Positions 8,997 through 60,528 of a stretch of DNA of 64,000 nt are shown here, piece by piece (within the stretch, counting starts at the first letter, position 1; each line of letters opens with the position of its first letter). The stretch comes from Cornus controversa (taxonomy: Eukaryota > Streptophyta > Magnoliopsida > Cornales > Cornaceae). The notes below the pieces were generated by a model. The model searched no databases. It was not told where the DNA came from and worked only from the letters and a program-made list of their open reading frames with translations. A program made the translations under genes and the position numbers. Location: NCBI GenBank assembly GCA_026545225.1, contig CM048845.1:53730033-53794032 (forward strand). The letters are read 5' to 3'.

Positions 8997-11306
8997 TGTT
9001 ACGCCCTGATTTTTGACTCTCAAAAATTGAAGGTGAACCTGTCCATTAAACCCTAATAAACCGTCTTAACCTTTAATTTACCGCAAAAGCTTAATTACAT
9101 TCTTATAAATGTGTGTGTACAATGCATCATCAACTAATCTTAATGGGCCCCACAACTAGTCTTACATATGTATCCAACACTATGTGGACTGCAATATTTT
9201 GCTCAATCGAAGTTCAAATTTCGCACAATCGAAAACTCAATTTCGCAAGATCGAAATTATTGCTAAATTGAAGTACTTGCAAAGTATTATCGAAACTCCC
9301 TTGGAAATTGGACCCTCTTTTATCAAAATTTTTGATACTATTTCACACAATCAAAGGATTTCGATCATGCGAAATGGGGATTTTGCACAATTGAAACTGC
9401 CTTCGGCAGAATTCCTGATTCATCATATTTGGTCAATTTTGTGCTCAAATTTTATACTAACACCCTAGGGTCATCCATACAACTTGACAATATAATTGAA
9501 ATGGTAATTCTCATACATTCTAGGTAAATGAACTGTCAAATCATAAACATAAGATTCATTCATACTTTGAACCCAAGTTGTACATTTACAAATGTGATCT
9601 CCTTAGTTTATAGTCATCAAATGAATTATATGTATATTGTCTAAAAACATTGACAATTCAACTATGACTACAACTATAATAAAATCAACATGCCACAAGC
9701 CCGTATGGATAGCCACATAAAAAATATCCAAAAATATATCCAAAATGCCGAAAGGAACTCCACTTGGACGTTCACGTTCCATCCGTCATCGATGCCTTAT
9801 CTGTAAAAAAGTTTGGGGGAGAGGGGTGAGCATAGAACTATACTCAGTAAGAGTGCCCCAGCCCACCTAGGCATAGATTCGACACTGACCTACATGATAT
9901 GCAACTATGATGTCACTACGATACATAACATATATCAATGTTCTCATATTCAATACTTTACAAATGCAAGTCGACAAATATGCATTTAAAATCATATAAT
10001 ATACTTAACAGTTAAACCACATAAGCATCAAGATATTTACATCTTCTTTCATCATAATCCGATACATAGACATGATTAGTCAACTTCGACGATCACTACA
10101 CTTGGGGTATGATTGGACATCTCCGACAATCATCCCATTGTGAGTATTCTCACCATTTCAAATACATGGTTGGTCATCTCCGAAATTCCATATATGTCAT
10201 ACTTGGTACTCCGATATAAATATGTACATATGTTCATAAAACACATATACTTCATATAGTATATAATTCTCATGCTCTTCAATGCACATTCTTGCTATTT
10301 GTAACTCTAGCATGCATTCCTTCATCTTCACAATTCCTATATAGTCACATATATGCTACAATTCATACACACTAATCACATATGCATACATTTCACCACA
10401 AATCAAATGTGCTCTCATTTCATATACATTGCATGTATAAATACATAATTCATCACATATCTCAATTTAAACTTTTGTAGCATATATAATTTCATAATGT
10501 AAAGGGGAGGAATAATTCACTCAACTCCCACCACTCACCCATACATGCTAGCATAACTTATAAAATTCCAAATCCACCAAAACACTAGAATTGACAACTA
10601 AGAGGGAAGAAACACCCTTATCTCAAGTTTGGAGCTTTCCTCTAGCAAGCCCCAAAATTGCCAAACTTCAAGTCCCTCCAAATCGAACTTTCTTTTCGTA
10701 GAACCGTAGATCAGAACAAGGAGAATAAACTTTCCTTCTTGGATTTAGCCCGAAACCAAACTCCAATCACCCTCAAATTTTAGAACTCTTTAATGGGGGA
10801 CTTTGAACCCAACAAAGTGAAGAGGAAGATGAAGGAAGAAAATTAGAGAAGATGGATCTTAAAGAGAAACAATGGCTGATCTCTATCTCTCTCTAATCTA
10901 TCTCAGAAATATTCACTTATATGTATTGACACCTCACCAAGTGCAAAATGACTATTTTACCCTTAAGTCACTTAACGTACCTCTTAAGCTCCATTTTCGA
11001 TTTCGAAAGTGACTACGGCTCCGAAATCACTTCTCTAACTCATTAAAAATTTTATTTGGTTCAAAATTAAAATAAGTATTTTTCAGAATATTTTCGGGTT
11101 TTCGGGCCCACCTAACCCACTTCCCGGGCTCCGTCGACCCAAAATTCTCAAATTCACCCAAACGCTCCCAAAACTTCTTAGAACCTCTAAACACGTTCTT
11201 AAACATGTTTTTCACATTTAAAATATGCTAAAAATAATTTAAAATACATTTATGTCAAATATGATGGATAAAAAGAAACCGGTCAAAATTGGTCCTGATC
11301 TCTACA
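8997..11306 (-). mobile_element. Solo LTR of the C chromovirus family
   Basis: In minus orientation it begins TGTAGAGATCAGGACC and ends GGGCGTAACA. It aligns over its length with the 3' LTR of element C (35799-44737 after its insertions are removed). It is about 2.31 kb and has no internal sequence, so it probably arose by LTR-LTR recombination. It interrupts the FRS pseudogene: the protein reading runs from VLFG on one side to GCAFL on the other. The flanks share accaaa, but the duplication is not clean. The LTR interior has a short-palindrome block (9195-9415). Confidence 0.85.
9195..9415. repeat. Short palindromic words in the C-family solo LTR
   Basis: Imperfect copies of a word of the type ATTTCGCAnnATCGAAAT occur at least six times (for example atttcgcacaatcgaaaac, atttcgcaagatcgaaatta, atttcgatcatgcgaaatgg). 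In element orientation the block lies some 200-400 bp before the LTR 3' end. Confidence 0.7.
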
Positions 11307-12211
11307 ACCAAATAACACATTCTTCTAATGATGGTTTACTCCAACAAATAGAGCACAAATCATGTTGTAATTATTTGTATGATAAGTGATATCAAATATG
11401 ACGACATCTCCAAAACATTAGTAATCTAATTTAGACAAACCATCTCTCTAAAAAAAGGATGGTCATTCGATTTTGATCATCCACCTGTAATTTATAAAAG
11501 AACATTGGATTTTTCAGCTTGCTTGCACTTAAAATAATTGATAAGACTTTGCTCATCGCCTACTTCTGTTGTCTTTGACCTTTGAGATTATAAAAAATTG
11601 TGACAATCCCATTCGGTAAACCCAACCTTTTTAACTCCATCGGCCTTTTTGTACAAATATGAGTATCACTTAGTTGCTCTTATGTCAGCTTCGACCATGG
11701 AATTAACTACACCTGTACCAGTATCACTAATCTTTCTCCTTGATCGTAACAAGTGCCTTTTCTCGAGCTTTACGAGTAGATGATTATGTTCAACAATGAA
11801 TTGTATTATTTTTCACACACCATTTTTCACTTTGAATGTAACATGAGCTTTACAACCAGTTCTAGTCAACAATTTTTTTAAAAAAAATTTCTTGAAAAAA
11901 GAAAGCTATCTCTTTTAAATCCCTCATAAGAACATACAAATGAACGTTGACACACTTCACTTATGCCTTTGTGACATCGATATTTATCCTTTCAAATACT
12001 AAAACCCTTGTTTATGGCATAACTATTATATAAATCATACGCTTCTTCTTCACTACAAACTAACATTCCAACTTTGAGCTCAAACTCCTCAATACTTTGA
12101 CATGTAATATAAGGGTAACTATCTTTGTCATCAACTACATCAGGGTTATCATCATCATCAATTATAATAATATCTTTATATCTATCAACTACAATATCAA
12201 CATATTTAATA
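11307..12211 (-). pseudogene. FAR1-related pseudogene, N-terminal part
   Basis: The minus strand reads an acidic leader, then VGMLVCSEEEAYDLYNSYAI, the start of the FAR1 DNA-binding (WRKY-GCM1-like zinc finger) domain. It continues with CKAHVTFKV and VEHNHLLVKLEKRHLLRS (His-x-His of the finger), MVEADIRATK and GFTEWDCHNFL. Internal stops occur (one right after GFSI, others further on). It is the N-terminal half of the pseudogene continued at 7660-8996, and the solo LTR lies exactly between the halves. The true 5' end is lost where element C begins at about 12212. Confidence 0.85.
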
Positions 12212-14611: not shown

Positions 14612-16047
14612 GAGTAAGTTCCCTCTACTACCACCCAATAGAGAATTAAAAAACATACCCTCTATATGAGGACAATAAAACATATAGATATAAAAATACC
14701 ATTTAATCCTTTAATCTAATATTATAGAAATAATTAGAACTATGTTCTGAACCAATCCATCCATTATCACAATAAAGGTAGAACAAGTTTCTAAGTTCAA
14801 ACGAGAGGCAATCCTAACATGCCTGAACATATAACTAAAGTTCTTATTATGTATTAGGCAATCCTCACATGCCCCCAAATATAATTTATAAATACCTTAT
14901 TAGGTATTAGGCAATCCTAACATGCTCCCAAATATAATTTACAAATACCTTATTAGGTACTAGACAATCCTGACATCCCCCCAAATATAATTTGTAAATA
15001 CCTTATTAGGTATTAAGTAATCGTGACATGCCTCCAAATATAATTTACAAATACCTTATTAGGTATTAGGCAATCCTGACAAGTCTTCCCATAATCTTAA
15101 ACACAACATATACTTATGTGCTTGAGTGATAACATATTTGAAACTATACCAATCCACAAGAATAGAAATAAAACTATTCAAAACCAAAACTGTCCATTCT
15201 CCACCGTTCACAATAGAAAGTAAATATTCATCTTCCATACAATATAACTACCCAAAGCAAAAACAAAAACAATATAAACAACCATAAATTTAAAGATTTC
15301 TAAAACAAAAGAAAAATAACAAACCCAACTTTAAAGTACACTTTTTGTACTAAATTTACAACAAGGAGGACTTATTTCATCTTGAAATTAAAGTCCCATG
15401 AATATTCTGTCCTAAAAAGATAAATTTGAATTTTCAAAAATTTTCTAGAATTTAAAAGTAATTTAAAATATTTTTTCCATTTTTTTCAATTTAAAAATGA
15501 TTTAAAAATTAAAAAAATATATTTAAATATTTCGAACTTGGCCTAAAATGGGCCCAGAGGTTGGGCTCGGTGAGTTGGACCCAACAGGAATTTTCCAAAT
15601 CCCGATCGGTCGCTAGAACAGGGCCCATGCTCCGGCAGTGCGCGTGGGCTTGCGCTGCCCTGTTCCCCTTTCTTCTCCAGTGCACACAACAACATGCAAC
15701 GCGCTTTTTCGGTCACTTTCCGGATAGTTTATGGCTATCGATCACCTCCATTTTTATACCAAACTTCTCCTCTTAGTCTAAACTACCTATTGGTACAAAA
15801 ATTCCCTTCATTCATAACCTAAATAAAAAACCCCCAATTTTTCAAGTTCTAGGCGAGTTCATTCACAGAGGCTAGAACAACACAATAATCAGACTAAAAT
15901 CCTTCAACACATAAATTTCATGTTTATACAAATTTACATGCTTATAAATATATATATATATATAAAATATATGCATGTATATATATATACACATATATAT
16001 AACTATACACATATACAACATACAACAACTAACCTCATTAGTCTACA
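14612..16047 (-). repeat. Left LTR of element B, outer segment
   Basis: It matches 32619-34250 of the right LTR (agtaagttccctctac start; shared 53-bp tandem repeat; shared caacaactaacctcatta). The segment ends at the CTACA duplication where element A is inserted. The other half is at 26821-27460. Confidence 0.85.
14815..15085. repeat. 53-bp tandem repeat in B-family LTR (5 copies)
   Basis: The unit contains ataccttattaggtattagg, then caatcctgacatgcccccaa, and an atataatttacaa segment. There are five copies here, seven in the other LTR of the same element (32860-33205) and three in the B-family solo LTR (50385-50525). Confidence 0.85.
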
Positions 16048-16299: not shown

Positions 16300-16432
16300 G
16301 CCTGAAAATTAAGTTTGAGTCGCCTGAAAATTCCAGTGAGTTTGCAATTTCAAACTAGCACTTTCAGCCACCTGAAAGTGAACTTTCAGCAGGCTGAAAC
16401 TGCACTTTCAGCAGGCTGAAAGTGCCTGTGTC
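16300..16432. repeat. Palindromic word array in element A LTR
   Basis: Three copies of a palindromic word, actttcagcaggctgaaagt and close variants, are preceded by related half-words (cgcctgaaaatt, twice). The partner LTR (24220-24336) has one 22-bp unit fewer. Confidence 0.8.
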
Positions 16433-19063: not shown

Positions 19064-19098
19064 TAAGGGAATTTCGTCCCCAAAATTAGAAACATACC

Positions 19099-22000
19099 TC
19101 AAGTAGAAAACAACTCGGGATATTTTGAGCGGATTTCTTGTTCTCGCTCCCACGTAGCCTCCTCGAGTCCGTGATGTCTCCAAAGGACTTTAACCAATGG
19201 AATAGTCTTGCCCCGAAGTACTTGCTCCCTAGTATCCAAAACCTGTATCGGTCTCTCCTCGTAAGACACGTCCTCCCCCACCTCAAGATCTGTCCAATCT
19301 AGCACATGTGAAGGATCTGGCTCATACTTTCTCAACATCGAAACGTGAAAAGTATTGTGCACATTTGCCAATTACGGTGGTAATGCCAAGCGATATGCAA
19401 CCTCACCCACACGATCCAATATCTCAAATGGACCGATAAAGCGTGGGGCTAGCTTCCCGCTACGGCCAAACCTCATCAAACCCCGGTGTGGCAAAACCTT
19501 CAAGAAGACATGGTCCCCCACCTCAAATGCTAAAGGCCTCTGCCTTCTGTCAGCATAGCTTTTCTGACAACTCTGAGCCGTAAGCAAACGCTGACGTATG
19601 ATCTTAATCTTTTCTGTAGTCTCTCTGACTATATCTGGCCCCAAAGCCACTGTCTCACCGACCTCTGTCCAACAAACTGGTGACCTACAAGGTCTACCGT
19701 ACAAAGCCTCAAATGGAGCCATCTCAATACTAGCTTGGTAGCTATTATTGTATGCAAACTCCACCAATGGAAGGTGATCCTCCTAACTGCCTTGAAAATC
19801 AAGTGCACATGCTCTAAGCATATCCTCCAAGATCTGTATAGTACGCTCTGACTGACCATCTGTCTGAGGATGGAAAGCCGTACTGAAATGGAGATCTATA
19901 TCAAGTACAGCCTGAAAACTCTGCCAAAATCGTGACGTGAATCTCGGATCCCTATCAGACACAATGGAAACTGGCACTCCGTGCAGTCTCAAAATCTGTT
20001 CAATATACAACTGACTAAGAGTATCCACATCATCCGTCACTCGAATCGGAAGGAAATGAGCCACCTTAGTCAATCTATCCACAATGACCCAAACCGCATC
20101 GTGACTCTTCCTCGTCCTCGGTAACCCCGTCACAAAATCCATAGTGACGTGTTCCGTTCCCACTTCCACATAGCTACTGGTAAAGGCTGTAACAAACCTA
20201 CCGGTCTCTGATGCTCGACCTTCACTTGTTGATAAGTGAGGCACCTTGCCACAAACTGTGCGACGTCCTTTTTCATGCCTTTCCACCAATACTGTCTACG
20301 AAGATTATGGTACATCTTGGTACCACCAGGATGTACTGCAAGTTTGGAGCTATGAAACTCCCTCAAAACCTCATCCTTACAAGCCAATGGCACAACCATT
20401 CTGTCTCTGAACCTCAGACCTCCGTCTGAATGGATTACCCAATCCTCCACTGCTTCGGCACCCGTAATCTGAGTGCGAATGCTCTCTAACTCTGTGTCAT
20501 GCCTCTGCTCCCCAACCACCCTACTCACTAGAGTTGGTTGTGCTATAAGCGTGAACAAAGTAGCCTGTTCCTCACTCTCACTGAAGTACAATCCCATTCC
20601 TGAGATATCTTCCATCATCCTCCACTTACGAATAGCAATGCTAGCCAAAGTGCCATGTGATTTCCTGCTCAATGCATCGGCAACCACATTAGCCTTCCCC
20701 GGGTGATACTAAAGATCAAAGTTGTAGTCTTCTATGTATTCCACCCATCTTCTCTGTCTCATATTCAAGTCCTTTTGTGTAAAAAGGTACTTCAAACTCT
20801 TATGATCGGAGAAAACCTCAAATTTTTCTCCGTAGAGATAATGCCTCCACGTTTTCAAAGCAAAAATCACCGCCACCAACTCCAAGTCATGAGTCGGGTA
20901 ATTCTGCTCGTGGATCTTCAACTGTCGGGAACCATATGCAACAACCCTCTCGGTCTGCATCAATACACATCCCAAACCATCCCGTGAAGCATCACAGTAG
21001 ATGACATAACCCAAACCTCGCTCGGGAATAATCAATATTGGAGCACTAGTCAATCTACGCTTCAATTCCATAAAAGAATGCTCACAAGCCTCGTTCCACT
21101 CAAACTTAACTCCTTTACGAGTAAGCTTGGTCATCGGCGCTGCTAATTTCGAAAAGTCTTTCACAAAATGCCGGTAATATCCTGCCAATCCCAAGAAGCT
21201 ACGTATCTCGAATATGTTCTTAGGCCTCTCCCAATCCATTACCGCTTCAATCTTAGAAGGGTCTACCGATACTCCTCCTTCCGACACCACGTGTCCTAGG
21301 AACTTCACCTCCATTAGCCAAAATTCACATTTTTCAAAGTTGGCATACAAACGGTGCTCTCTCAATGTCTGTAACACTGTCCTCAAATGGATCTCATGCT
21401 CTTCCATAGAAGAAGAATACACAAGAATATCATCCACGAAGACCACCACAAACCTATCCAAGTACACCCTGAATATCCGGTTCATCAAATCCATGAACGC
21501 TGCTGGTGCGTTCATCAATCCAAATGGCATCACTAGAAACTCATAGTGGCCATATCTAGTCCGAAAAGTTGTCTTCGGAATGTCTTCTTCCCTTACCCTC
21601 AACTGGTAATACCCCGACCTCAAATCGATCTTCGAAAAACAAGTCGAACCCTTAAGCTGATCAAACAAGTCATCTATCCTTGGCAAAGGATACTTGTTCT
21701 AAATCGTTGCTTGGTTCAACTTACGGTAGTCTATGCACAACCATAAAGATCCATCCTTCTTTTTAGCAAATAGGACCGGAGCTCCCCAAGGCGATGTACT
21801 AGGTCGTACAAATCCCTTATCCAACAATTCTTGCAACTGATCTTTCAACTCCTTCAACTCAGCCGGTGCCATCCAGTACGGTGCCATAGAGATAGGCGCG
21901 GTACCAGGAGCAAGATCAATGCTAAACACAACATCTCTCATCAGAGGTAACTCTGTCAAGTCCTTTGGGAACACATCCACAAACTCACTAACCACCGGTG

Positions 22001-23978: not shown

Positions 23979-26815
23979 TGTCACGCCCCAATTCCCGACT
24001 CCCAGAAAATTGGATGTGAACCGGTTCATTAAACCTCAATGAACCTCCTCATATGTCTCGATTCCCGTGGAAGCTAAACATGCGCATGTAGTTATCTATG
24101 CGTATACTCATCATTATCTGTCCTAATGGGCCACACATCGGTCTATGTATGCATGACATTTCATTTCCACTCTTAGATCACAAAAAAATCACAAAAAAAT
24201 ACATTTTTAAGGGTTACAGGACTTTCAGTCGCCTGAAAATTAAGTTTGAGTCGCCTGAAAATTCCAGTGAGTTTGCAATTTCAAACTAGCACTTTCAGCC
24301 ACCTGAAAGTGAACTTTCAGCAGGCTGAAAGTGCTTGTGTCTGGACTTTTGACAGCATTCCTCAATCTGACTTCAAATGCTAATATCTCATAATCCGTAA
24401 GTCCGTTTAACTTGAAATTTGACATGGATCATCCTCAACGTGTCTAGTTTCTAACCCAATTTGAATCACTCAAAAATACCAACCACAGCTGAAGTTATAC
24501 TTAAATTAGTGGGCGTGGGTCAGATTACCCACTCATGCACTAACACATGCATATCTTTCTCACTTTAAATCAAAAACAAGGTCCATAACCTATCAAAATG
24601 AAGCTAACATAATTCTCTTACTATATACATAAATTCCATTCACTCCTTGAACTCAAAATGGACACTTTTGAGCATTTGTTCCCCCCAATGGCTACTTTAA
24701 TGCCTTAATGGCCATCAAGTATATTCACATAACATGCATTTCACATTTGAAATGTAATTCCATCAATTTTTCTTACCATCTTCACTCAAGAACTCGTGCA
24801 TACATACTTTCCATAATCCATTTGCTCATGAGCAACCATACAAGAAATCACAACCAAAGAGAAAAATGGTCCTAAGGTGCCATACATCTCCAACACACAC
24901 TTTTCTCAAAAGATACATACCATTCATGTGATTTTTCCAAGTTTATAGTCATTACAAGAATTCACGCATAAGGTTCAAAATGCCATAAATTCTACCATGA
25001 CTAAAACTAAATCATTACCGTGCCACAAGCCGGCACAGATAGCCAAATGCACAACTGTCCAAAAATATAGCAAAATACAGCTAGAACTCTCTCCTTGGAC
25101 ATTCAAGTCCCATCTGTCATCGGCGCCTTATCTGTAAAAGAGTTTATAATAAAGGGGTGAGCACCACAGCGGCTCAGTAAAGGTTCCCCAACCCTCCTAA
25201 GTGCCGACCCGACACGACCTACATGAATGCATGCCACTACATTACATGTATCATCCAACATATACCATGTTCATTCACAAGCAATGCATATATAAAAGAA
25301 TGCATTAAACACATAGCATACTTCATAATTTAGAATGGAAGCATTAACCACACTCTTGTCTCTCTCTCGGACTCAACCCGAGACCCTAGCATGATTCTTG
25401 ATCAACCACACAACCTAGGCTATTTTACACCCAAGCTCAGAATTTTCATCACCGAGAACATCGGTCCTACCAAGTAATGAAACTGTTTTAACACGCATCA
25501 CCGAGAACATCGGTCCTACCAGGTGATGAGATCATTTTTGGAATGCACCACTGAGAACATCGGTCCTACCAAGTGATGAGATATTTTTGAAATGCACCAC
25601 TGAGAACATCGGTCCTACCAAGTGATGAGATATCTTCGGACTACACCACCGAGAACATCGGTCCTACCAAGTGATGAGACCCTCACAAGATTTTCACTGA
25701 GAACTCCCACCTCCATGTAAACAAGATTTTCATCGGTCCTAGCATGCATTTCATTTCCACAAAACCACATATACCACATATATGTAAACACATACATATA
25801 ACCTCTCATATGCATACAACTTCAAAATTTGCATACTTTAGTCATGCCTCACTAAATGCATAATTTTAGCATATGGAACTAACATGCATTCAACCACCAC
25901 ATATTCCACATATAATCACATATATGACACAAGGTTAGGTATTTGCACATAAACCCCAAATTGAGCACATAAAACCTATATACACAATTTTTTCATTCCA
26001 CACACTTTAACCCACATGCTAAACCAACACAAGGATACCAAATGTGCAAAGATAGGACTCAAGAGAAGGAGAAAACACAAATTTTCACACCCCTCACCGT
26101 CCTAAATCATGTGATACACAACCTACACATCTCCTCTCCACCCGAAACCCTAGAATCGACAATTAGGAGAGAAGAAGAACCCCTACCTCGAAAATGAAGG
26201 CCTTCCAAGCACTTCACCAATTTTCCAGCAGAGTCTACCTTGCCGAATCACCACTTTGATCGATTCAAAGGGAAGCCCTAGCCGTCCCCTACGTATCTCC
26301 CTCCTTCGGTGAGTCTTGAATTTAAGCCGAACGGGTCTGAAATGTAGAGAGAAGGGAGAGCTTTGAAGATGGAGAACTTTAGAGAGAGAAAAAGGCGTGA
26401 GATCTGTTGAAATGTCCTTGCCACTGATATTTAAAATATCTAGGGCTTGCAAAAAGACCAAAATACCCCTAGGCCACTTAACGCACATTCCCGGACTCCT
26501 TTTTCGATTCTGAAAACTCCTACGGTCTCGAAATCACTTCCTCTACTCTCTAAACATTTCATCTCAGCCATTCTCAGAAATAAATATTTTCGAAAATTTT
26601 CTGGATTCCCGGACCCACTTAAGTCGCACCCCGGGCCCCGGTTTGACCAAAAAGTCAAACTTCTGCAATTCTCCCGAAAACTTCGCAAAACCTTAAAAAC
26701 ATTCTCCAAACATGTTTCCCACACTCAAAACATGTTAAACACCACTCAAAATGCATTTATGGCAATTATAATGCGAAAAATACAAAACCGGCCAAAATTG
26801 GTCACGGTCTCTACA
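23979..26815 (-). repeat. 5' LTR of element A (2837 bp)
   Basis: Partner of 16048-19049. Differences are scattered substitutions, one palindromic unit fewer at about 24320, and a deletion of about 155 bp replaced by about 25 bp of filler near 25714-25739 made of pieces found nearby. Confidence 0.92.
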
Positions 26816-32215: not shown

Positions 32216-34894
32216 TGAAATACCCTTACAATCTCACGCATGAGGTGGCCAATATCACACATAAAACATAAGGAATACCTATAATTGATAGCATACAAGC
32301 ATAGAATATAAGTGACAAGCAAAAAGAAAATAATTACAGAAGAAAACTTTACTTGATATAATAAATAAAGTTAAAAAAATTTTTGAGTCTAAACAATACA
32401 CCTTAGAAGTCCTGTAACTCAAGGACCCCTAAACCCAAAATAATAAAGATTAAATAATCTAAACAACGTTCCAATAAACTTCATATCCTGAACATAATAA
32501 AAGGAATATGTCCCAACTTTGAAACTGGTAAGAGAAGACGACTGCAATGATCTACGAACTTAAGACTCTAAACTCGCGGTGGAACCAGCTTGGGACCTGA
32601 AATATCAGCAAAGTGGGTTAAACCCAAGAGTAAGTTCCCTCTACAATAAACCAACAGAGACTTGGTAAACAAATCCTCTATATGAGGACAACAAAACAAA
32701 TAGTTATAAATATTCCATTTTATCATTTAATCTCCTGTCCCAGAAATAATTAGAACTATGTTTTGAACTAATCCATCCATTATCACAATAAAGGTAGAAC
32801 AAGTTTCTAAGTTCAAACAAGAGGCAATCCTAACATACATGAACACATAACTAAATTTCTTATTAAGTATTAGGTAATCTTGACATGCCTATACCCATAT
32901 TTTATGAATACCTTATTAAGTATTAGGAAATCCTGACATGCCCACAAATATAATTTACAAATACCTTATTAGGTATTAGGCAATCCTGACATGCACCCAA
33001 ATATAATTTACAAATACCTTATTAGGTACTAGGCAATCCTAACATGCCCCCAAATATAATTTGTAAATACCTTATTAGGTATTAGGAAATCCTGACATGG
33101 CCCCAAATATAATTTATAAATACCTTATTAGGTATTATGGAATCTTGACATGCCCCCAAATATAATTTACAATTACCTTATTAGGTATTTGGCAATCTTG
33201 ACATGCCTTCCCATAATCGTAAACACAACATATACTTATGTGCACGAGTGATACCATATTTGAAACTATACCAATCCACAAGAAAAGAAATAAAACTATT
33301 CAAAACCAAAACTGTCCATTCTCCTCCATTCACAAAAGTAAATAAATAAAGAACAGAATAGAACACTACATCAACATTCATCTTGCATACAATACAACAC
33401 CCAAAGCAAAAATAAAAACAATATAAACAACCATAAATTTAATTAAATACTCAACCATAAATTTAAAGATTTTTAAAACAAAAGAAAAATAACAATCCCA
33501 ACTTTAAAGTACACTTTTTGTACTAAATCTACAACAAGGAGGACTTATTTCATCTTGAAATTAAAGTCCCATGAATATTCTGTCCTAGAAAGACAAATTT
33601 GAATTTCTAGAAAATTTCAGGAATTGAAAAGTAATTTAAAATATTTTTCCTATTTTTTTTCAATTTAAAAATGATTAAAAAATTAAAAAATATATATTTA
33701 AATATTCGGACTAGGCCTAAATTGGGCCAAAAGGTTGGGCTCGACGACTTGGACCCAACCAAAATTTTTTCGGTCCTAGCCGGCCGCCAAAACAGGACGC
33801 ACGTGCCCCTACGCGATGATAGTGTGCGTAGGCATGCGCTGCCCTGTTCCCCTTTCTTCTCCAGCACGCCCAACGTCTTTTTGGCCACTTTCCAGACAGT
33901 TTTCAGCCACCGTTCACCTCCATTTTTATTCCAAACTTCTCTTAATGGTCTAAACTACCTATTGGTACAAAAAGCCCCTTTATTTATAGGCCAAATCAAA
34001 AACCCACAATTTTTCAAGTTCTAGGGTTCCTTATCTAAAACTTAAAATTCAAGCAAATTTTCTCTACAACCTACATCCCAGAGATCAAGGTTCATTCGTA
34101 GAGGCTAGAACAACACCATAATCAAACTAAATCCTTCAACACATATAAATTTCATGTTAATACAAATTTACATGCTTATATATATATATACACACACGTA
34201 TATATAACTATACACATATACATCACACAACAACTAACCTCATTAATCCACATATGCATTTAATCAAAAATCCCAAATTGTTATACCTAATCATATATAA
34301 ACAAACATGAATATGCATGAAATCAAACAACACAAATATTTATTTGTTTACAAATTCAACGGGGAAGTGTAGAATGAAACTTGCCTTTCGATGAACAAAA
34401 ACTCACCCCAATGAATCGCTCCTTCTTTCTCCTCTCTCTTATGTCTACTGTTATTTCCCTCAATGTGTGTGAAAGCAACAGAAACCCTAACCCTTTTCTT
34501 TTTATTTTTTTCTTTAGAAAAACTAATAAAAATATAAAATAATTAAAAGGGAAAAATAGTAATAATAAACTCTTAGCCCATAATAATAAAAATACACTTA
34601 GCCCAACACCTAAACAATTATACTCCATCCCAACTCAACCCAAACCCTAACTCTCCCTAGCCCAATCTAAAAAAAAATTAAAATAAAAGAAAATACAAAA
34701 GTATAGTCCAACTAAAAAGAAAATAAAACAACCTAAAGCATTTAGCATTTAAGGCACTCAATAAACAATTTAAGACACAAAAAAAATAATTTAAACAAAT
34801 AAAGCATTTAACTTTTAAAACACCCAATAAACAATTTAAACAAATAAAACATTTAAATTAAAATTAAATAGCCTCAAAATTACGGGATATTACA
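32216..34894 (-). repeat. 5' LTR of element B (2679 bp)
   Basis: In minus orientation it begins TGTAATATCCCG and ends GGGTATTTCA. It includes seven copies of the 53-bp tandem unit (32860-33205). It is the complete reference copy for this family; the same LTR occurs as a solo at 47004-52478. Confidence 0.88.
32860..33205. repeat. 53-bp tandem repeat in B-family LTR (7 copies)
   Basis: Same unit as 14815-15085, with a conserved accttattaggtattagg core. Confidence 0.85.
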
Positions 34895-38286: not shown

Positions 38287-39565
38287 ACTATATGGGAATT
38301 GTGTAGATAAAATACATGCTAGAATTATATATAGCAAGAATGTGCATTAAAGGCATGAGAATTATATACTATGTGAGGTATGTGACTTACGAGCATGTAT
38401 ACATGTATATCGGAGTATTGTCCAAGTATGATATACATGAAATTCTGAGGTGACCAACCAGGTATTGAAGTGGTGAGAATATCTACAATGAGATGATCAT
38501 CAGAGATGCTCAATCATACCCTAAGTATAGTGATCATCAAAGTTAGCAAATCACAAGTGTAAGGCTTACATAATGCCATAAATGTATGACCGTCAGAGTT
38601 GCCCAATCATACAAGTGTCATCGGAGTTGACCAACACTTTGGTGTCAACGGAGTTGCACAACACCACATGATCGTTGGAGTTGACCAATCATGTCTATGT
38701 ATCAGAGTATGACCGAATAAGATGTAAATATCTTTATACTTGTGTGTTTTAACTGTTAAGTATGTTATATAGATTAAATGTATACTTGTTGAGTTCCATT
38801 GAGTTGGTTGACATGAGAATTTGGTATATGTCATGTAGTGTAGTGATATTATGGTTAGATATCATATAGGTCAGTGTCAGGTCGGTGCCTAAGTGGGTTC
38901 GGGCATTCTTACTGAGCTCGTTGTTTTGCTCACCCTTTTCTCCCAAACCTTTTTACAGATACAGCACCAATGACGAATGGGATATGAACGTCCAAGTGAA
39001 GTTCCTCATGGCATTTTGGATTCATTTTGGATATCTTATATGTGGTTATCCATGCTGGCTTATGGCATGTTGATTTCATTATAGTTGTAGTCATAGTTGA
39101 ATTCCTAATGTTTTTGGACAATATACATATAATTCATATGGTGACTATGAAGTTGGAAGAGCACCTTATAAAATGCATGATTTGGATTCAATGTATGAAT
39201 GGATTTCATGTTTTTGAATTGAGGATTTATCGTTTGGATTATATGATGATTACTATTTTAATTATGTTTCAAGGTTATATGGATAATTCTAGAGTGCTAG
39301 TGATAAGCGTTGAATGTTATACATTCTCGGGCCTTTACTTATGTATTTTGATCCCATAGCTGCACATATTGTATAGTTTTTACGTGTTTTTATATTTTTG
39401 ATGATTTCAGGTTCAAACTCAGAATTCGGCATATTTCGAGTCCTTTATTAGTTCAAGAATGCATTCATATGTCCAGCCGTACTTTATAGAAAGTCCACAT
39501 CAAGGAATAGTGAATGGCATGTCAAGACCGGAGTCGAAAAGCTAAAGAGTTGAAAACTTGCAGAA

Positions 39566-39640
39566 GAAGAAGACTTTGATGCATCGAAGTACCCACTTTG
39601 ATGCATCGAAGTCCCTATTTCGATGCATCATCCAAACCTA
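39566..39640. repeat. GATGCATC palindromic words in element D LTR
   Basis: The words actttgatgcatcgaagt, then ctttgatgcatcgaagt again, then atttcgatgcatcatcc lie about 270-340 bp into the LTR and some 170 bp upstream of the TATA box. The second LTR (42966-43040) has an extra word (cttcgatgcaccgaagt). Confidence 0.75.
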
Positions 39641-39810
39641 CAGAAGATATTTTTCAACAGATATTTTCTTCACTTGCCACTTGTCCAATTTTGTTTGGAT
39701 AAAGCCTTGAACGGAATTTCTATGATATTTTGAGCCTCAGATCAGTTATACAACTAAAAAATACGTAATAATAAAAGATATCATAATTCTTGTAATAGGG
39801 AGCATGAGCA

Positions 39811-39818
39811 TATAAATA
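39811..39818 (+). promoter_or_regulatory. TATA box of element D LTR
   Basis: TATAAATA in the first LTR; the second LTR has tatatagaat at 43211. It is followed by GA-rich leader-like sequence, consistent with a Pol II start shortly downstream. Confidence 0.5.
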
Positions 39819-40771
39819 ATTCTAGAGAGAGAAAGTGAAGTTCTAGAAAGGGAAAGCTTCAAAGAGGGCTTTGTCAGGCCTTGAAGACCATTTTAAGCAT
39901 GGGACCATCTCTGTCTATGGACTGCTTCCAGCCCACCATGATCAACTAATCCTTCTCTAGGGTTTTGACAACCCTAGTCTTGTAAATATGTTCTAACTTC
40001 AATGAATTGGAGATTTTTATGTATTTTATGTATATGTCTCTTGCCTTGAGCCTTGTATTAATGTAAGTTTACAACTTTTTCATGTTCATGTGTTGTAATT
40101 TATCTTCTTATCTTAGAAATACTTAAATTCCTCACATGCTTCTCAAACACTTGTAAGTTTCACAAGGACTACAAGTGATGACTTGAGACTAGTTTCCATT
40201 ATAACATGCATAGCTAGATTTGCATAGTCCATGCTTAGAGATGGTGATTTAGCTACACTTAGGTAATTCGGTAAGTAGGTAGGTAGGAAAATCACGCTTT
40301 TTGAAGATGGATTATAGTATATTAAGGTGCATGTATTTTATTGGCAACATTGTTGTATGTGGGACTTGTCAACACGTTATTTAGTATATAATTCCATGAA
40401 TTCCTCCAATTTGGTAGAAGTGTGGCATACTACGAGGCTAGTGGTGAAGTCTAACCCTAGTCCTTTACTCTTTTCTCAAAACTTTGTATTTTTAATTATC
40501 TTCTACGCTTTCAAATTAGAGTAAGAAAACAACCAACACTCCGTTGTGATTTAAACAAGAACCAACCCTCAACCTTTAGCGAGTTATACCTACGTAGTCT
40601 CTGAGGGATTGACACCCTCAACTTAGAGCCCTATCCTTCAAGGATTTATTCTATTGTGAATGGTAATTATAAATTACGAGTAGCGAAACTGCACACAAAA
40701 ATTTTTGGCCCCGCGCTGACTACGACTATTTGGCCATGGTCTTAGAGTGTCTCAGTGCTAGCCTTCATTAG

Positions 40772-41011
40772 TTGCAGGTGGAGTTCGCCAAACATCGTCA
40801 GCTGACGAATGATTTCTTGGGTATTATTGGCGAAGGCATGGTTAGTTTGATGCAAGACAACAACCTTGCCTTTCAGCATCGTCGGCAGACTAACGCACGT
40901 CTGGACTCAGTTATTGTGGGCCAATGGCAGATCTAGCAGCTGCTTCGGCAGGCGCTTGGCATGAATGCCTCTACTTTTGTACCACAACCACCGCCACCGC
41001 CTCAGCATTAG
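40772..41011 (+). pseudogene. Element D internal coding remnant of unknown family
   Basis: It is a frame of 80 codons bounded by stops, with one internal TAG. It reads LQVEFAKHRQLTNDFLGIIG, then HRRQTNARLDSVIVGQWQ, and ends in a Pro run before the stop. The pattern resembles a coiled-coil segment with a Pro-rich tail, perhaps from a gag precursor region. It is not assignable to a known domain. Confidence 0.4.
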
Positions 41012-42680
41012 TTTTAGTTATTTTTGTTCTTATTTTTGTTTCGTATTTTGTTTATTTCTATTTCATCTCTATTTTTATGTACTTATAGTCATTGAACGGT
41101 CTATTGCCTTGTTTTGCTCACTTTTGTTGCTTTTTAAGCAATTCTTTTGTATTCCATAAATTCTGGCATTTGTACTCACACATGTTTGAATTAATGGAAT
41201 ATTATCAGCTTGTCCTTGTTTTTACCCTTTATTTTTGTCTTTTCTTTATATTTACTTTCCAGTGAATGTATATTATATTGGTATGTACTTGTATTTGTGC
41301 AGGTTCTGATGCCCCCCTTTGTCCGGCACATACCCGTGTACTCGTGTACCCACTACCCTTCCACGGTTGATGTTTTGACTTTTTGAGACCCATCACCCCA
41401 TCGGTTCCATTGTTCAAACTCTTTTTAGTTCAAACATTAAGGACAATGTTTCATTTAAGTTTGGGGGTACGGTACACTTGCATACACTGGTTGTTTTAAA
41501 AATTTGTGTATATATTGCATTATATTGCATTTTTATTTCATGTTTACCATGATGTCCTTCTATTTGACGATATGATACCCATAACGTCATCAATAAATTA
41601 ATCTTTTAATTAGGAGCTTTAACATCCAAAAATACTCGAACTGTTGAAAATTATGTGTTAGGATTAGAACGGTTTACATTTTTGTTTAGTCTTTGAATAT
41701 TGCACAGTTCTTTCCCTAATTTGTCCTTAACAACACAAACATGCACGCATGCATTCAATTGTGGGGTATACGTCGTTTGGAGAATTTTGAAAATGTGTGT
41801 TTTTATTTGAATTTCTTGAATAACGAATTGCTTTAGAAAAATTAAAAACTAAAAAAAATAGAGAAAAAGAAACAAAAAAATAGAATAAATTGGCAATAAG
41901 CCTTCTCGCTCATTAAACCGGGCCTCTATGCCTCATGAAGCATAGAGTGTTCGCGTTTAAAAGATGTGCAAGGTTGAGCAATAAAGAAACAATTGGTTCA
42001 TTTAAGTTGTAGCCTAGTGAGCTCGATTATTAAGTTCGAGGGGTGTTTCTTCACCCAATGCCCTAAAACTATCCGGTTTAGGAGTCATTGACCCAACACT
42101 GTTACATGGGCTTACTAGAAAGCTTAAAGGACTTAGGCATTGCATGGCCAATTGTGCTTAATGTTTGTAAATATTTTTGCAGTTAGTGTTATGCTTTGGT
42201 GATCCGTTTCGGAAAGTTGTTTCCTTTAACAAAGGATGGTTTCCTTATTCTCCATTAACAACAATAAACCACACATTTAAATATATGTTCACTTTTCAAA
42301 GAGAATTTTAAGGTCTGCACTTGTATGTGTATCGGACTGACCATTATGTGGGGACTGTCGCCTAATTCTAATTTTTGACGGTTATATCTATTGATGTCCA
42401 TATAGCTCCATAATACTTGTTGCACTTGTCATTTTGAGCATAAATTGGGGTATCACTCTTTTCTAGTTGATGACTAAGTAAACCACCATTTTTTCATACT
42501 TTTGTGAGTTTAACAGGCGTGTTAAACCTAATAAGACTTCACTCATCCACTAGACATGTCTAGGGGTTTAAAAGGCTTGTTACATTTGCTAAATGCAACC
42601 GGATTTCCCACGAAAGCGGAATTAGAGTAGTTCCTCTATTTTATTTCATTTTGTATTGCAAAGGGACTAGTAATATCTAA
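41012..42680. other. Non-coding interior of element D
   Basis: AT-rich, with no open frame of note. It holds a polypurine-like aagtttgggggtacgg at 41457-41472 and short A-runs near 41850-41885. Confidence 0.6.
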
Positions 42681-44159
42681 CTTTGGGGGTGTGATAAGCG
42701 TTGAATGTTATACATTCTCGCACATTTACTTATGTATTTTGATCCCATAACTACACATATTGTATAGTTTTTATGTGTTTTTATGTTTTTAATGATTTAA
42801 GGTTCATACTCAGAATTCAACGTAATTTGACTCCTTTATTAGTTCAAGAATGCATTCAAATGTCCTGCCGTACTTTATGAAAAGTCCACATTAAGGAATA
42901 GTAAATGGCATGTCAAGACTAGAGTCGGAAACTAAAGAGTTAAAAACCTACAGAAGAATGAGAGACTGATGCATCGAAGTACCCACTTCGATGCATCACA
43001 GCTTCGATGCACCGAAGTCCCTACTTTGATGCATCGTCCAAACTTGCAGAAGATATTTTTTTGCAGATATTTTCTTCACTTGCCACTTGTCCAATTTTAT
43101 TTGAATAAAGCCTTGAATGGAATTTCTATGATATTTTGAGCCTCAGATCAGTTTTATAGCTAGAAAATATGTAATAATAAAAGATATTACAATTCTTGTA
43201 ATAGGGAGCATATATAGAATTCTAGAGAGACAAAGTGAAGTTCTAGAGAGGGAAAGTTTCAAAGAGGGCTTTGTCAGGCCTTGAAGACCATTTTGAGCAT
43301 GGGACCATCTCTGTCTATGGAGTACTTCCATCCCACCATGATTAACTAATCCTTCTCTAGGGTTTTAACAAACCCTAGTCTTGTAAATATATTCTAACTT
43401 CAATGAATTAAGGATTTTTATGTAGTTTATGTATATTTCTCTTGTCTTGAGCCTTCTATTAATATAAGTTTACAACTTCTTCATGTTCATGTGTTGTAAT
43501 TTATTTTCTTGTCTTAGAAATGCTTAAATTCTTCAGATGCTCCTTAAACACTTGTGAGTTTCATAAGGACTACAAGTGATGGCTGGATACTAGTTTTCAC
43601 TATAACATGCGTAACTAGATTTGCATAGTCCATGACTAGAGATGGTGATTTAGCTACACTTAGGTAATTAGGTAAGTAGGTAGGTAGGGAAATCATGCTT
43701 TTTGAAGATGGATTATAGTATATTAAGGTGTATGTATTTTCTTGGCAACGTCATTGTATGTGGAACTTGTCAATGCGTTATTTAGTACACAATTACATGA
43801 ATTCTCCCAATTTGGTAGAAGTGTGGCATACTACGAGGTTAGTGGTGAAGTCTAACCCTAGTCCTTTACTCTTCTCTCAAAACTTTGTATTTTTAATTAT
43901 CTTCTGTGCTTTCAAATTAGAGTAAGTAAACAACCAATACTCGGTTATGACTTAAACAAGAACCAACCCTCAACCTTTAGCGAGTTATACCTACGTAGTC
44001 TCTGTAGGATCGACACCCTCAACTTAGAGCCTTATCCTTCAATGATTCATTCTATTACGAGTGGTAATTATAAATTGTGAGTAGTACAACCGCACGTAAC
44101 AGCTAGGGTGAGATTTGGACATGAAAATGGACTAAATATTGTTATTTCAGGATCCCAGT

Positions 44160-44440
44160 TGAAGGGCATTTCAAGTGTTTGAAAACCAATTTTCGATTGT
44201 GTGAAATCCTTTGATTGTGCAAAAATCCTTTTTCAATTGATCGAAGACCTTCAATCATGTGAGCTCGTATCAAAACTTTTTGATAGAAATGTGTCAAATG
44301 CTAGAAGAGTTTCGATAGTACTTCGATAGACTATCGATTAATCGAGATATTCGATTGATCAAAAGTCCCACTTTGATTATGCGAAATACCCATTTTGATT
44401 AATCGAAGGGTATATTATGATTAATCAAAACATGCAGTCC
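44160..44440. repeat. Short palindromic words in element C 3' LTR
   Basis: Degenerate copies of ttcgattgtgtgaaat, tttcaattgatcgaag and ttgattatgcgaaat. They are the counterpart of the block at 9195-9415 in the solo LTR. Confidence 0.65.
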
Positions 44441-49375: not shown

Positions 49376-49560
49376 GCAACTGTATCAGTCCGGACATTTC
49401 GATGCATCGAAATGTCCATCGACCCTTCGTTGTATCGAAACAACAAGGACGATGCATCGAAAAACCTACAGGATTTAGGAATGTCAAAAGTCCCGAGAGT
49501 GTGTTTGGTAGATAGATGATTGATACATGTTCGATGCATCGAAATCATCACTTGGATGCA
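49376..49560. repeat. Palindromic block in solo LTR F, including a 26-bp perfect palindrome
   Basis: At 49392-49417 a perfect 26-bp palindrome has the centre CATTTCGATGCATCGAAATG. Related words follow: cgttgtatcgaaacaac, gatgcatcgaaaaac and ttcgatgcatcgaaatc (49530-49546). The block lies about 360-540 bp before the LTR 3' end. Confidence 0.85.
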
Positions 49561-53300: not shown

Positions 53301-53401
53301 AGATAAAGGAGTAATGGTTGTCATGGCTTTAGATGAACCAAGATTGGAGGATTTTGCAGGTTTGTCTTGATTTTTTTTAAGGCTTCTTGACATTTGTCAT
53401 C

Positions 53402-56250: not shown

Positions 56251-56339
56251 TGTAGGGATAGCCTGTTGTATTTCTTGAAATTAGGTACTTCGAATTTGGA
56301 AGGAAGCTTTGCGTCAGATAAGATACAGAGATTTGAGTA

Positions 56340-56690: not shown

Positions 56691-56739
56691 ATATTTTAAA
56701 CAAGAAGATAGATTTTTGAAAAGAGGAGTGGAATGTGAT

Positions 56740-57750: not shown

Positions 57751-57768
57751 TCCCTAGTGGAGTCACCA
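57751..57768 (-). promoter_or_regulatory. Primer-binding site of element G (tRNA-Arg type)
   Basis: The minus strand reads TGGTGACTCCACTAGGGA, close to the primer site used by Tat/Ogre elements. It lies two bases from the LTR end at 57771. Confidence 0.75.
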
Positions 57769-58424: not shown

Positions 58425-59220
58425 GGGTAGAAAAGGTTTTAGGTCCCCAAGAACGTTTAGGAGAGATTTAAGGTCCTTGTCAGACCATGAATGTTGGGTT
58501 AAAGGTCTTCGAAGACCATTCTTGAATCTTCAACAAGTCATGGATGACTTGGTTAAATGTGCTGGGTTTAAAGTCTCCGTGGACCGTGAATTAGTCTTCA
58601 ACAAGCCTTGGATGAGTTAGTTGAATGCACTGGTTTAAAGTCTCTATGGATCATGAATGAGTCTTCAACAAGTCGTGGATGACTTTGTTGAACGCGCCAA
58701 GTTTAAGGTCTCCGCAGACCGTGAATGGGAGGAGAGACAGTCACGGATCTCAATTGTATTGAAAGTGAGTTTAAGGTCCTCATGACCATGAATTGAATGA
58801 GAATGTGTTTAAAGTTCCCATGACTGTTATTGAATCTTCAATAATTCATGGATGACTTGGTTGAACGCGTCAGGTTTAAGGTCTCTGCGGACCGTGAATG
58901 AAGGAGAGACAGTCGTGGGTCTCAATTATATTGAAAGTGGGTTTAAGGCCCCCGTGACCGTGAATTGAATGAGAATGAGTTTAAAGTCCCCGTGACTATT
59001 CTTGAATCTTCAACAAGTCGTGGATGACTTTGTTGAATGCGCTAAATTTAAGGTCTTAGTGGACCGTGAATTGAAGTGAAATGAGTTAAGAGACTTGAAT
59101 GAAATGTAAGTGCAATGGGTTTAATTGATTTGAAATGAGTCGAGGGACTCGAATGAAATGTAATCGCAATGGCTTTAAGGTCCCATGACCATGAATTGAT
59201 TTGAAATGAGTCAAAGAACT
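58425..59220. repeat. Minisatellite array 1 (~172-bp higher-order unit)
   Basis: The sub-units begin gtttaaggtctccgcggacc or gtttaaagtccccgtgacta and carry gaatcttcaacaagtcgtgg followed by atgact. A higher-order period of about 172 bp shows in starts at 58701, 58874 and 59045. Confidence 0.8.
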
Positions 59221-59329
59221 CAAATATATTGAATATAACTTCAAGAGAAGTTTGATGAGGTAGAATTGTCCTAGGGAATGTACCTAAGAATGGAAGGTGT
59301 GTTTAGAATCCCTAAAGCTTGAAAATAAG

Positions 59330-60225
59330 CAAGTAAGCATAGATTGAACATGTATTGAACAAATAAACATGTAATTGAACATATGAGCATGTATTGAAAG
59401 CATGTGTGGACACGTGTGAGCATGTAAGCATGTGAAGAGCATATAAGTTTGTAAGCATGTGAGCATGTATAGAAAGCATGTGTGGAGAATGTGAGCATAC
59501 ATTAAATGAATAAATATATATTGAATAAGAAATCATGTCTTGAATAAGAAATCATGGATTGAAGATGTACTGAACAAGTATGCATATAATTGAACATGTG
59601 AACATGTATTGAAAGTATGAATTTGAACATGTGTTGAACAAGTAAACATGTATTGAATAAGAAAATATAAACTGAACATGTATTGAACAAGTAAGCATGT
59701 ATTGAATAAGAAAATAGGAATTAAACATGTATTGAACAAGTAAGCATGTATTGAATGAGAAACTATGATTTAAGGATGTTTTGGACAAGTAATCATGTAT
59801 TGAACAGGAAAGCCTTAATTGAACATGTATTGAACAAGTAGGCATATATTGAAGGAGAAAATATGAATTGAACATGTATTGAACAAGTAACCATGTATTG
59901 AATGAGAAAACATAAATTGAATATGTATTGAACAAATAAGTATGTGTCGAATAAAAAAATATGAATTGAGCATGTATTGAAAGAAAAAATGTGAATCAGA
60001 CATGTATTGAACAAATAAGCATGTATTGAATGAGAAAGCTTGAATTGAACATGTATTTAATAAGTAATCATGTATGGAATATGAAAACAAAGCTTGAATA
60101 AAGAAACATGTATTGAATAAGTAAACATGTATTGAATGAGAAAACATGGATTAAAAATGTATTGAACACGTAAGTATGTATTGAATAAGAAAACATGGAT
60201 TGAACATGTATTGAACAACTAAGCA
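59330..60225. repeat. Minisatellite array 2 (~50-bp unit)
   Basis: The unit tgaacatgtattgaacaagt followed by aagcatgtattgaataagaa is repeated about 14 times, with a looser half-unit zone at the left. Minus-strand open frames of up to 127 codons here are Phe/Cys/Tyr-rich by-products of the repeat. Confidence 0.85.
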
Positions 60226-60412
60226 TACGATAAGTGTTCAATTCTATGCATTTGAACCCTCTTTATTGCATATGTTAGTTCCGTTTTTGCGTTTACCGAG
60301 ATATGTTTACGGTATTTTTGTGTTTTTGATGTATTGCAGGTATTGGAGTAAATGGAGCAAAGTTGGAAGCTTTCTGCAGTCAAGAGATGAAATCAGAAAA
60401 TGTTGCCAAGGC

Positions 60413-60528
60413 ATTTCAATCAATCGAAATTTGGATTTCGATCAATCGAAATTTCGATTGATCGAAATCTCATTTCGATTGATCGAAATCTCGATCAATC
60501 GAAATGCAATTTCGATCAATCGAAATGC
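60413..60528. repeat. Six-copy palindromic word array in element E LTR
   Basis: There are six copies of the 18-mer ATTTCGATCAATCGAAAT or its exact reverse complement ATTTCGATTGATCGAAAT in 116 bp, some overlapping. They lie 120-240 bp upstream of the TATA tract. This spacing and repetition suit a protein-binding or foldback element. Confidence 0.9.

What the first reader, a model, noticed from the sequence alone, without database searches (positions are those of the whole stretch)
9195..60528. The same kind of palindromic block recurs in LTRs of four different retrotransposon families, each with its own spelling
Blocks lie in family C (9195-9415, 44160-44440), family A (16300-16432 with CTTTCAGC..GCTGAAAG; solo LTR F 49376-49560 with GATGCATC), element D (39566-39640) and element E (60413-60528). 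Word length is about 16-20 bp and the architecture is alike, but the sequences are not homologous between families, and even two A-family LTRs use different words. In D and E the block lies upstream of the TATA box; in A, C and F it lies 200-570 bp before the LTR 3' end. This looks like convergent or exchangeable cis-modules. I know of no standard LTR feature that explains it.
Basis: partly seen in the sequence, partly recalled or inferred. Interest (0 to 1): 0.75.

Follow-up and report, generated by a model that had tools for sequence, protein, structure and literature searches.

The report
Shared palindrome arrays in retrotransposon promoters
Two distant groups of jumping genes in one plant genome carry the same strictly spaced arrays of a 16-letter mirror-symmetric DNA word in their control regions, which looks like a shared, swappable landing platform for a DNA-binding protein and extends a feature known from another retrotransposon group.

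Summary
C, D, E and F do not use unrelated words: they share one dyad, (T/C)TCGAT-N2-ATCGA(A/G). TTTCGATNNATCGAAA occurs 12,789 times in the 771.7 Mb genome, against 1 for the reversed, equally palindromic control. Only A is spelled differently (CTTTCAGCNNGCTGAAAG, 340 against 0). The architecture is stricter than described: 7+2+7 dyads, fixed 2-bp spacer (spacers 3-12: 47 sites, control 67), neighbours mostly 16 or 21-22 bp apart, whole units gained or lost. TATA-like boxes follow the blocks in C, D, E and F alike; none was found for A. E-type elements carry a second array of the same words before a TATA-like box and an accessory ORF. A non-palindromic link is shared by E's internal array and F's LTR, although E's and A's reverse transcriptases are only 40% identical. 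Best reading: enhancer arrays for a dimeric DNA-binding protein, partly exchanged between Ty3/gypsy lineages. Closest known: Sirevirus (Copia) palindromic repeated motifs; superfamily and CGG-CCG core are not met. Binding, expression and the factor are untested.

The parts
60414..60526 (+). E LTR array: six dyads TTTCRATYRATCGAAA / TCTCGATCAATCGAAA, starts 22-16-21-16-21 bp apart (60410-60534 aligned in A2)
   Evidence: fold rank 1 of 4023
60228..61650 (+). E LTR (approximate, read by eye), followed by primer-site-like TGGCGCCGTTGCCGGGGA at 61655 and a gag ORF at 61934-64000
   Evidence: Retrotrans_gag E 9.4e-21
49392..49543 (+). F LTR array with GC-centred dyads TTTCGATGCATCGAAA and the link AACCTACAGGATTTAGGAATGTCAAAAGTCCCGAGAG shared with E's internal array
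39574..39629 (+). D 5' LTR array, CTTTGATGCATCGAAG x2 (22 bp apart) plus TTTCGATGCATC
42967..43036 (+). D 3' LTR array, longer than the 5' LTR array by exactly 16 bp
44192..44430 (+). C2 LTR array, decayed dyads with TTTCGAT-type half-sites, several 22 bp apart; contains TTCGATAGTACTTCGATAG, nearly as in E's internal array
9195..9415 (-). C1 LTR array, asymmetric words (TTTCGAT..TGCGAAA), several 22 bp apart, weak as palindromes
16359..16425 (-). A LTR array, word ACTTTCAGCNNGCTGAAAGT, neighbours 22 bp apart
24290..24332 (-). A second LTR array, shorter by exactly 22 bp
20712..21698 (-). A reverse transcriptase/RNase H ORF (Ty3/gypsy)
   Evidence: RVT_1 8.5e-32, RT_RNaseH 7.4e-35; homologues 60-82% identical in the 120 listed

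Best explanation
The blocks are promoter-upstream enhancer arrays. Each unit is a two-fold symmetric site of 7+2+7 bp bound by a dimeric DNA-binding protein. Units mostly sit 16 or 21-22 bp apart (about 1.5 and 2 helical turns), so that neighbouring dimers can cooperate and activate, or keep open, the promoter just downstream. In E-type elements the same words are used at two promoters, in the LTR and before an accessory ORF between pol and the 3' LTR. Shown from sequence: the word, the fixed spacer, the spacing of units, the position before promoter-like sequences, the symmetric changes and the sharing between lineages. Inferred: the protein, the activation, and that a common factor (host, or encoded by an element) explains why two lineages use one word. 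Arrays gain and lose whole units, and at least part of the array cassette moved between lineages. A's word would reflect a switch to a factor of different specificity, with the same geometry kept.
For: 12,789 sites of TTTCGATNNATCGAAA against 1 for the reversed pattern, itself a palindrome of the same composition. Spacer 3-12 bp: 47 sites, control 67; in 264 kb 12 of 12 TTCGAT/ATCGAA dyads have spacer 2 among spacers 0-15. Spacing: E-LTR neighbours 16, 21 or 22 bp apart in 57 of 67 pairs, 37-38 in 8; A-word neighbours 22, 44 or 70. LTR pairs of one element differ by exactly 22 bp in A's array and 16 bp in D's. Symmetric variation at -1/+1: 72 of 83 E-LTR units (shuffle mean 44.3, p 2e-4), 35 of 46 internal units (27.7, p 0.01), 17 of 18 F-group units (13.7, p 0.017); 9 both-side cells against 3.9 shuffled, 0 of 500. 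Second array: TATTTAAA 34 bp after the last dyad in 4 of 5 internal loci and 50 bp in 1; GAGGTAAGT, like a 5' splice site, in 4 of 5 (the fifth stretch, L025, ends before); accessory ORF downstream in L045 and L046. Shared link between E-internal and F arrays. T[GA]CAG within about 10 bp after the last dyad of a (sub)array in 11 of 12 blocks looked at, A being the miss; background 0.001 per bp (noticed first, counted afterwards, and blocks of one family are not independent).
Against: No binding, expression or chromatin data. Spacing is looser outside the E LTR: 25 of 41 internal and 5 of 12 F-group neighbours are 16-22 bp apart. Position -2/+2 shows no symmetric excess (29 of 46 against 29.5; 11 of 18 against 11.1; invariant in E LTRs), and -3/+3 only in the internal array (33 of 46 against 25.1, p 0.001). 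Two of five measures do not exceed shuffles (pairs changed on both sides 145/500; further pair types 499/500), and its covariation score (0.101) is exceeded by a slide of -1 (0.111). Units and copies are related by descent, so p-values overstate independence. No TATA-like word was found for A, L014 or L029; the one for L022 lies past the LTR end. C1 is not palindromic beyond background. No factor was identified.
Confidence: 0.6

Rival explanations
1. The blocks are selected, or noticed by the host, as RNA hairpins: transcripts through the 3' LTR fold and feed small-RNA production, as proposed for maize Sirevirus palindromes.
For: Blocks have some of the strongest folds in 264 kb (E rank 1 of 4023); smRNA excess over palindrome clusters in maize Sireviruses is summarised in PMC10760457 (passages).
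Against: A hairpin does not need a 2-bp spacer or regular unit spacing, yet the spacer is fixed and E-LTR spacing is quantised; the same word is kept in different families. C1 has lost fold strength (rank 391).
Confidence: 0.15
2. The arrays are a by-product of copying: template switching on inverted repeats (quasi-palindrome correction, recalled) and slippage keep arms matched and duplicate units, with no function.
For: Units are gained and lost whole between LTRs of one element and between copies; arms change together.
Against: Does not explain the same word in two lineages, arrays at two promoters of one element, or the fixed spacer; the equally palindromic reversed word is not amplified.
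Confidence: 0.15
3. The array binds a protein made by the elements themselves (for example the accessory ORF of E), which counters silencing, as VANC does for VANDAL transposons; sharing of the word lets other families exploit it.
For: The accessory ORF sits behind an array; [quoted passage not shown]
Against: The accessory protein's Pfam matches are weak: Transposase_32 below the curated cut-off (36 against 45 bits) and a still weaker HisKA_3; its homologue gave a useless model (pLDDT 36.8). No DNA-binding domain was shown.
Confidence: 0.1
4. Chance or composition.
For: C1 alone looks like background.
Against: 12,789 against 1; 340 against 0; 20 against 1.0 long arms.
Confidence: 0.01

Closest known systems
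Sirevirus repeated motifs (RM) in LTRs and upstream of env (Bousios et al. 2010, PMC2829016; abstract and passages read)
   Same: High-copy palindromic words, a different word per element, clustered upstream of the TATA box in the LTR, with additional copies before an extra gene between pol and the 3' LTR.
   Different: Here the hosts are Ty3/gypsy elements of two lineages; core is TCGAT-N2-ATCGA (or CAGC-N2-GCTG) not CGG-CCG; one word is shared across lineages; the spacer is fixed at 2 bp and neighbours are mostly 16 or 21-22 bp apart. The paper reports the RM as Sirevirus-specific and absent from classic Copia elements.
Maize Sirevirus palindrome-rich cis-region (Bousios et al. 2016, not held; known here only through PMC10760457 and PMC5311732 passages)
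   Same: Palindrome clusters in LTR regulatory regions, variable, strong predicted folding.
   Different: Copia; CACCGGACNNNGTCCGGTG; small-RNA data exist there and not here.
VANC target motifs of VANDAL transposons (PMC5735166; passages read)
   Same: Short motifs accumulated as repeats in non-coding parts, units changing together, words differing between related elements.
   Different: VANDALs are DNA transposons (recalled); motif YAGTATTAY is not described as a palindrome (no occurrence of 'palindrom' in the main text); a cognate protein is known there.
Accessory genes between pol and 3' LTR of plant Ty3 elements (PMC7264820 passages; PMC11963269 abstract and passages)
   Same: Long pol-3'LTR region with an extra ORF; own promoter reported for maize Grande gene23.
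   Different: Here the ORF is sense and preceded by a palindrome array, a TATA-like word and a splice-site-like sequence; the passages I read mention no palindromic array (in PMC11963269 'palindrom' occurs only in one reference title; PMC7264820 was not searched for it).

Membership tests
Sirevirus repeated motif | carried by Ty1/copia Sirevirus elements | tested here: not met
   A has RVT_1, RVP_2 and RT_RNaseH (Ty3/gypsy type); the RT between two E LTR arrays (L067) aligns to A's RT at 40% over 333 columns; E gag is Retrotrans_gag. Not tested for D.
Sirevirus repeated motif | core CGG-CCG signature | tested here: not met
   Words are TCGAT-N2-ATCGA and CAGC-N2-GCTG. The paper itself lists Tnd-1 without CGG-CCG.
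Sirevirus repeated motif | several palindromic copies clustered in the LTR | tested here: met
   not met for C1.
Sirevirus repeated motif | cluster shortly upstream of TATA box | tested here: inconclusive
   TATA-like word within 200 bp downstream in 8 of 14 items (D5, D3, E, F, C2, L040, L025, L036), C1 too on a recheck; not in A16, A24, L014, L029; L022's hit lies past the LTR end. A word match only, no TSS data.
Sirevirus repeated motif | additional copies 5' of an extra (env-like) gene | tested here: met
   Internal array with TATTTAAA in 5 of 5 loci of that flank type; the accessory ORF itself was read downstream of 2 of them (L045, L046). Whether it is env-like was not tested.
Sirevirus repeated motif | array forms a CpG island | not tested
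   No CpG-island criterion was computed.
VANDAL/VANC target | YAGTATTAY-type motif in a VANDAL transposon with a VANC gene | tested here: not met
   Words differ; carriers are LTR retrotransposons; accessory protein has only weak Pfam matches. A VANC-like protein elsewhere in the genome was not searched for.
Athila/Tat-type Ty3 element (for E) | RT phylogeny within the lineage | not tested
   No reference tree was built; the lineage name is inferred from the primer site, long pol-3'LTR region and Transposase_32 (recalled associations).
Chromovirus (for A, C, F) | chromodomain at the integrase end | tested here: inconclusive
   Chromo E 1.1e-4 in 1 of 48 window fragments; the table does not say which.

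The most novel reading that the evidence does not exclude
A single dimeric DNA-binding factor (host transcription factor or element-made activator) has become the shared control point of distant Ty3/gypsy lineages in this plant. Its composite enhancer cassette (dyad array, TRCAG, link, second array) travels between lineages by recombination or template switching and is used both in LTRs and before an accessory gene. A-type elements escaped by rewriting the word while keeping the 7-2-7, 22-bp geometry, an arms race or niche split readable at more than 12,000 sites.
Probability: 0.33. Interest if true: 0.78.

Novelty: new variant of a known kind. Interest (0 to 1): 0.62.

Why it matters
It takes a feature reported as specific to Copia Sireviruses into Ty3/gypsy elements, shows one word shared by two lineages with a part of the cassette apparently exchanged, and gives precise geometric rules (2-bp spacer, 16 or 21-22 bp between units, symmetric change) that make the open question of what these palindromes are for testable by ordinary protein-DNA assays. 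If one factor reads them, it could act on thousands of retrotransposon copies in this genome at once.

Tried and rejected
Rejected: chance. Rejected: words unrelated between C, D, E and F. Rejected: the loci L025/31/36/39/44 as a further TE family; they read as the internal array of E (and their spacing to E LTR sites). Set aside: insertion-site palindromes (PMC6911290, passages), which concern target sites, not LTR content. D grouped with E only through L026, where a D-like LTR (89% over 314 bp) lies beside the E LTR; D and E themselves share 74% over 85 bp. Led nowhere: literal search of the word in papers (258 papers hold both strings, only the 15 listed were seen, as titles and abstract starts, none about plant LTRs); paper searches (none found), 100, 124 and 125: apart from the Sirevirus and maize papers cited, I saw in the listed titles and abstract starts no report of such arrays in Ty3/gypsy LTRs, which is not proof of absence. 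Structure model of a Transposase_32 homologue, pLDDT 36.8, not used. tRNA scan, nothing. The whole-genome counts of TTTCGATNNATCGAGA and TCTCGATNNATCGAGA and a further palindrome control (TTTCGTANNTACGAAA) did not complete. The sampled word sites come only from the first 4.45 Mb of C1.
Full report
What was checked. The window lies in a 771.7 Mb genome (G000:C1:53730033-53794032). It looks like a plant genome: most of the named sources among the 120 listed relatives of A's reverse transcriptase are plants, e.g. Solanum, Stephania, Cucumis. I read all six blocks, scanned palindromes in the window, and compared the window plus 20 ten-kb stretches taken at fixed steps on C1-C3 without regard to content (L005-L024; 264 kb in all) with dinucleotide shuffles and with fold-energy shuffles.

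The blocks exceed chance. Perfect arms of 10 or more (low-complexity arms left out) number 20 against 1.0 per shuffle; clusters of three palindromes in 150 bp number 8 against 0.4. Five of those eight clusters are not the words discussed here, so other palindrome clusters exist too. In the fold scan E ranks 1, D3 6, D5 12, F 29, A 35 and 43, C2 59 of 4023 windows, but C1 only 391. A word-blind count of 16-bp dyads (7+2+7, at least 6 of 7 pairs) gives, per block of 75-281 bp, E 9, A 6 and 5, F 4, C2 3, D5 2, D3 2, C1 1, against a mean of 0.47 per 250 bp in 780 control windows, 4 of which reach 4. That count also picks up dyads formed between neighbouring units.

One shared word. TTTCGATNNATCGAAA has 12,789 sites in the genome. 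The control, the pattern read backwards (which is also an inverted repeat of the same composition), has 1. E uses TTTCGATYRATCGAAA, F and D use a GC centre (TTTCGATGCATCGAAA, CTTTGATGCATCGAAG), and C uses decayed and asymmetric versions. L022, one of the 20 stretches, carries the E words in an LTR of the A/C/F type. A alone is different: CTTTCAGCNNGCTGAAAG, 340 sites against 0. Of 17 A-word loci fetched (chosen from the sites listed on C1), 16 group with A by word-masked flanks and 1 (L058) with nothing; none carries a TCGAT dyad. At a loose threshold (60 bits, single linkage) A, C, F and the L022 group form one LTR superfamily, while E and D stand apart. So inside one LTR superfamily the word changed and the geometry stayed, and between two lineages the word is the same.

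Where the word lies. One search listed the first 50 sites, in 31 loci, all in the first 4.45 Mb of C1. I looked at 23 of these loci (L001-L003 and L025-L044; L004 overlaps L003). By word-masked flanks 15 are E LTRs, 5 are E's internal array and 3 belong to the F group. None of these 23 lay elsewhere; the other 8 loci were not clustered. D fell into the E group only because L026 holds a D-like LTR beside an E LTR; D and E share 74% over 85 bp.

Geometry. In 264 kb all 12 perfect TTCGAT/ATCGAA dyads have spacer 2 among spacers 0-15. Genome-wide, spacers 3 to 12 together give 47 sites, below their control of 67; spacers 0 and 1 were tested only in the 264 kb. E-LTR neighbours lie 16, 21 or 22 bp apart in 57 of 67 cases and 37-38 in 8; the internal array is looser (25 of 41 at 16-22) and the F group looser still (5 of 12). 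A-word neighbours lie 22, 44 or 70 apart. The two LTRs of A differ by exactly 22 bp inside the array, those of D by exactly 16 bp, and the extracted E arrays differ in length by 16, 21 or 22 bp.

Symmetric change. In 147 units with a perfect core, the base just outside the core matches its partner in 72 of 83 E-LTR units (shuffle mean 44.3, p 2e-4), 35 of 46 internal units (27.7, p 0.01) and 17 of 18 F-group units (13.7, p 0.017). The next position shows no excess, and the third only in the internal array. On seven aligned E arrays (those of 125 bp, out of 10 extracted from 16 sources), 96.6% of cells pair, with 9 both-side changes against 3.9 shuffled; but the number of pairs with both-side change (145/500) and of pair types (499/500) does not exceed shuffles, and the covariation score (0.101) is exceeded by a slide of -1 (0.111). 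Copies are related, so these are supporting rather than decisive numbers.

Two promoters. Five loci (L025, L031, L036, L039, L044) carry internal arrays of the same words. TATTTAAA follows the last dyad by 34 bp in four of them and 50 bp in L044. GAGGTAAGT, like a 5' splice site, follows in four of five (the L025 stretch ends before it). In L031 and L036 the array lies behind what reads by eye as the end of a pol frame. Downstream lies a sense ORF (430 aa between stops in L046; Transposase_32 E 8.4e-9, 36 bits, below the curated 45; 340 aa and 28.9 bits in L045), then the next E-type word site about 4 kb on, taken as the 3' LTR (site spacing). In the LTRs a TATA-like word follows the block within 200 bp in D5, D3, E, F, C2 and L040, and about 90 bp after C1's last half-site. 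A16, A24, L014 and L029 have none, and the one listed for L022 lies past the LTR end.

Cassette exchange. The dyad-free link between E's internal sub-arrays, taken from L036, was scanned over both strands of 264 kb. The best of 7026 windows is F's block (score 44, z 10.5), the second is L022's array (32), and the others are 28 or less. With the L044 and L025 links F is again first (z 8.0 and 9.8), but L022 does not stand out. The 10-mer GTCCCGAGAG occurs in all five internal loci and in F, and nowhere else in the sequences then held. A half-site-containing stretch of L031's array is best matched by C2 (z 10.7), of L039's also (8.3), of L036's not (C2 second); here shared half-sites help the match. 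The reverse transcriptase lying between two E LTR arrays (L067) is 40% identical to A's. T[GA]CAG follows the array in 11 of 12 blocks examined, A being the exception (counted after it was noticed, and blocks of one family are not independent). I read this as homologous cassette pieces in two lineages; direction and age are unknown.

Mechanism. A fixed dyad with fixed spacer, in a half-turn or full-turn register just upstream of promoters, is what an array of dimer-binding sites looks like. An RNA hairpin would not need the spacer or the register. This is inference: no factor, binding or expression was tested. That Sirevirus palindromes and repeat arrays in LTRs are thought cis-regulatory is taken from PMC2829016 and PMC10760457 (passages).

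Comparison. Sirevirus repeated motifs share the look, the place before the TATA box and the second cluster before an extra gene, but belong to Copia and have a CGG-CCG core; both of those features were tested here and not met. So these arrays work like Sirevirus motifs, as far as sequence can tell, and are not members. VANC targets are a second analogy (passages).

The internal spacing count was corrected to 25 of 41, the TATA tally to 8 of 14, and D's place beside E was clarified.

Noticed in passing
L048:2685-2743 and L049:6405-6463 (viral contigs): Two IMG/VR contigs carry three palindromic words each (CTCGATGCATCGAG in L048, TTCGAT(T/C)TATCGATAGG in L049), 22-23 bp apart; they resemble iterons of a replication origin (recalled, not tested; genes around them were not annotated).
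   Followed up: partly
window 39296-39300 and 44102-44106: Element D (39301-44101) appears inserted in a C-type LTR with a 5-bp target duplication GCTAG; block C2 is the part of that LTR right of D.
   Followed up: partly
L047:1271-1879: In the stretch 3' of the window's E copy, array words run in frame into the accessory ORF, as if the stretch between array and ORF were lost or rearranged.
   Followed up: no
window 59574-60262: Tandem repeats with a 49-bp (30+19) period, about 14 periods, end near the E LTR start.
   Followed up: no
window 14790-15195, 32806-33317, about 50395: 53-bp tandem repeats at two places with a related copy at a third; a short inverted repeat AATACCTTATTAGGTATT recurs in several copies.
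   Followed up: no
window, one of 48 ORF fragments: Animal haem peroxidase Pfam match (E 1.9e-15) among the fragments, perhaps a remnant or captured host gene; which fragment was not determined.
   Followed up: no
downstream of the blocks in A, C, E, F, L014, L022, L029: GGCCCA-type motif after the arrays, similar to the plant Site II promoter element (recalled).
   Followed up: no
words TTTCGAT and TTTCAGC: The A half-site differs from the common one at three positions, all transitions; whether this reflects deamination history is open.
   Followed up: no
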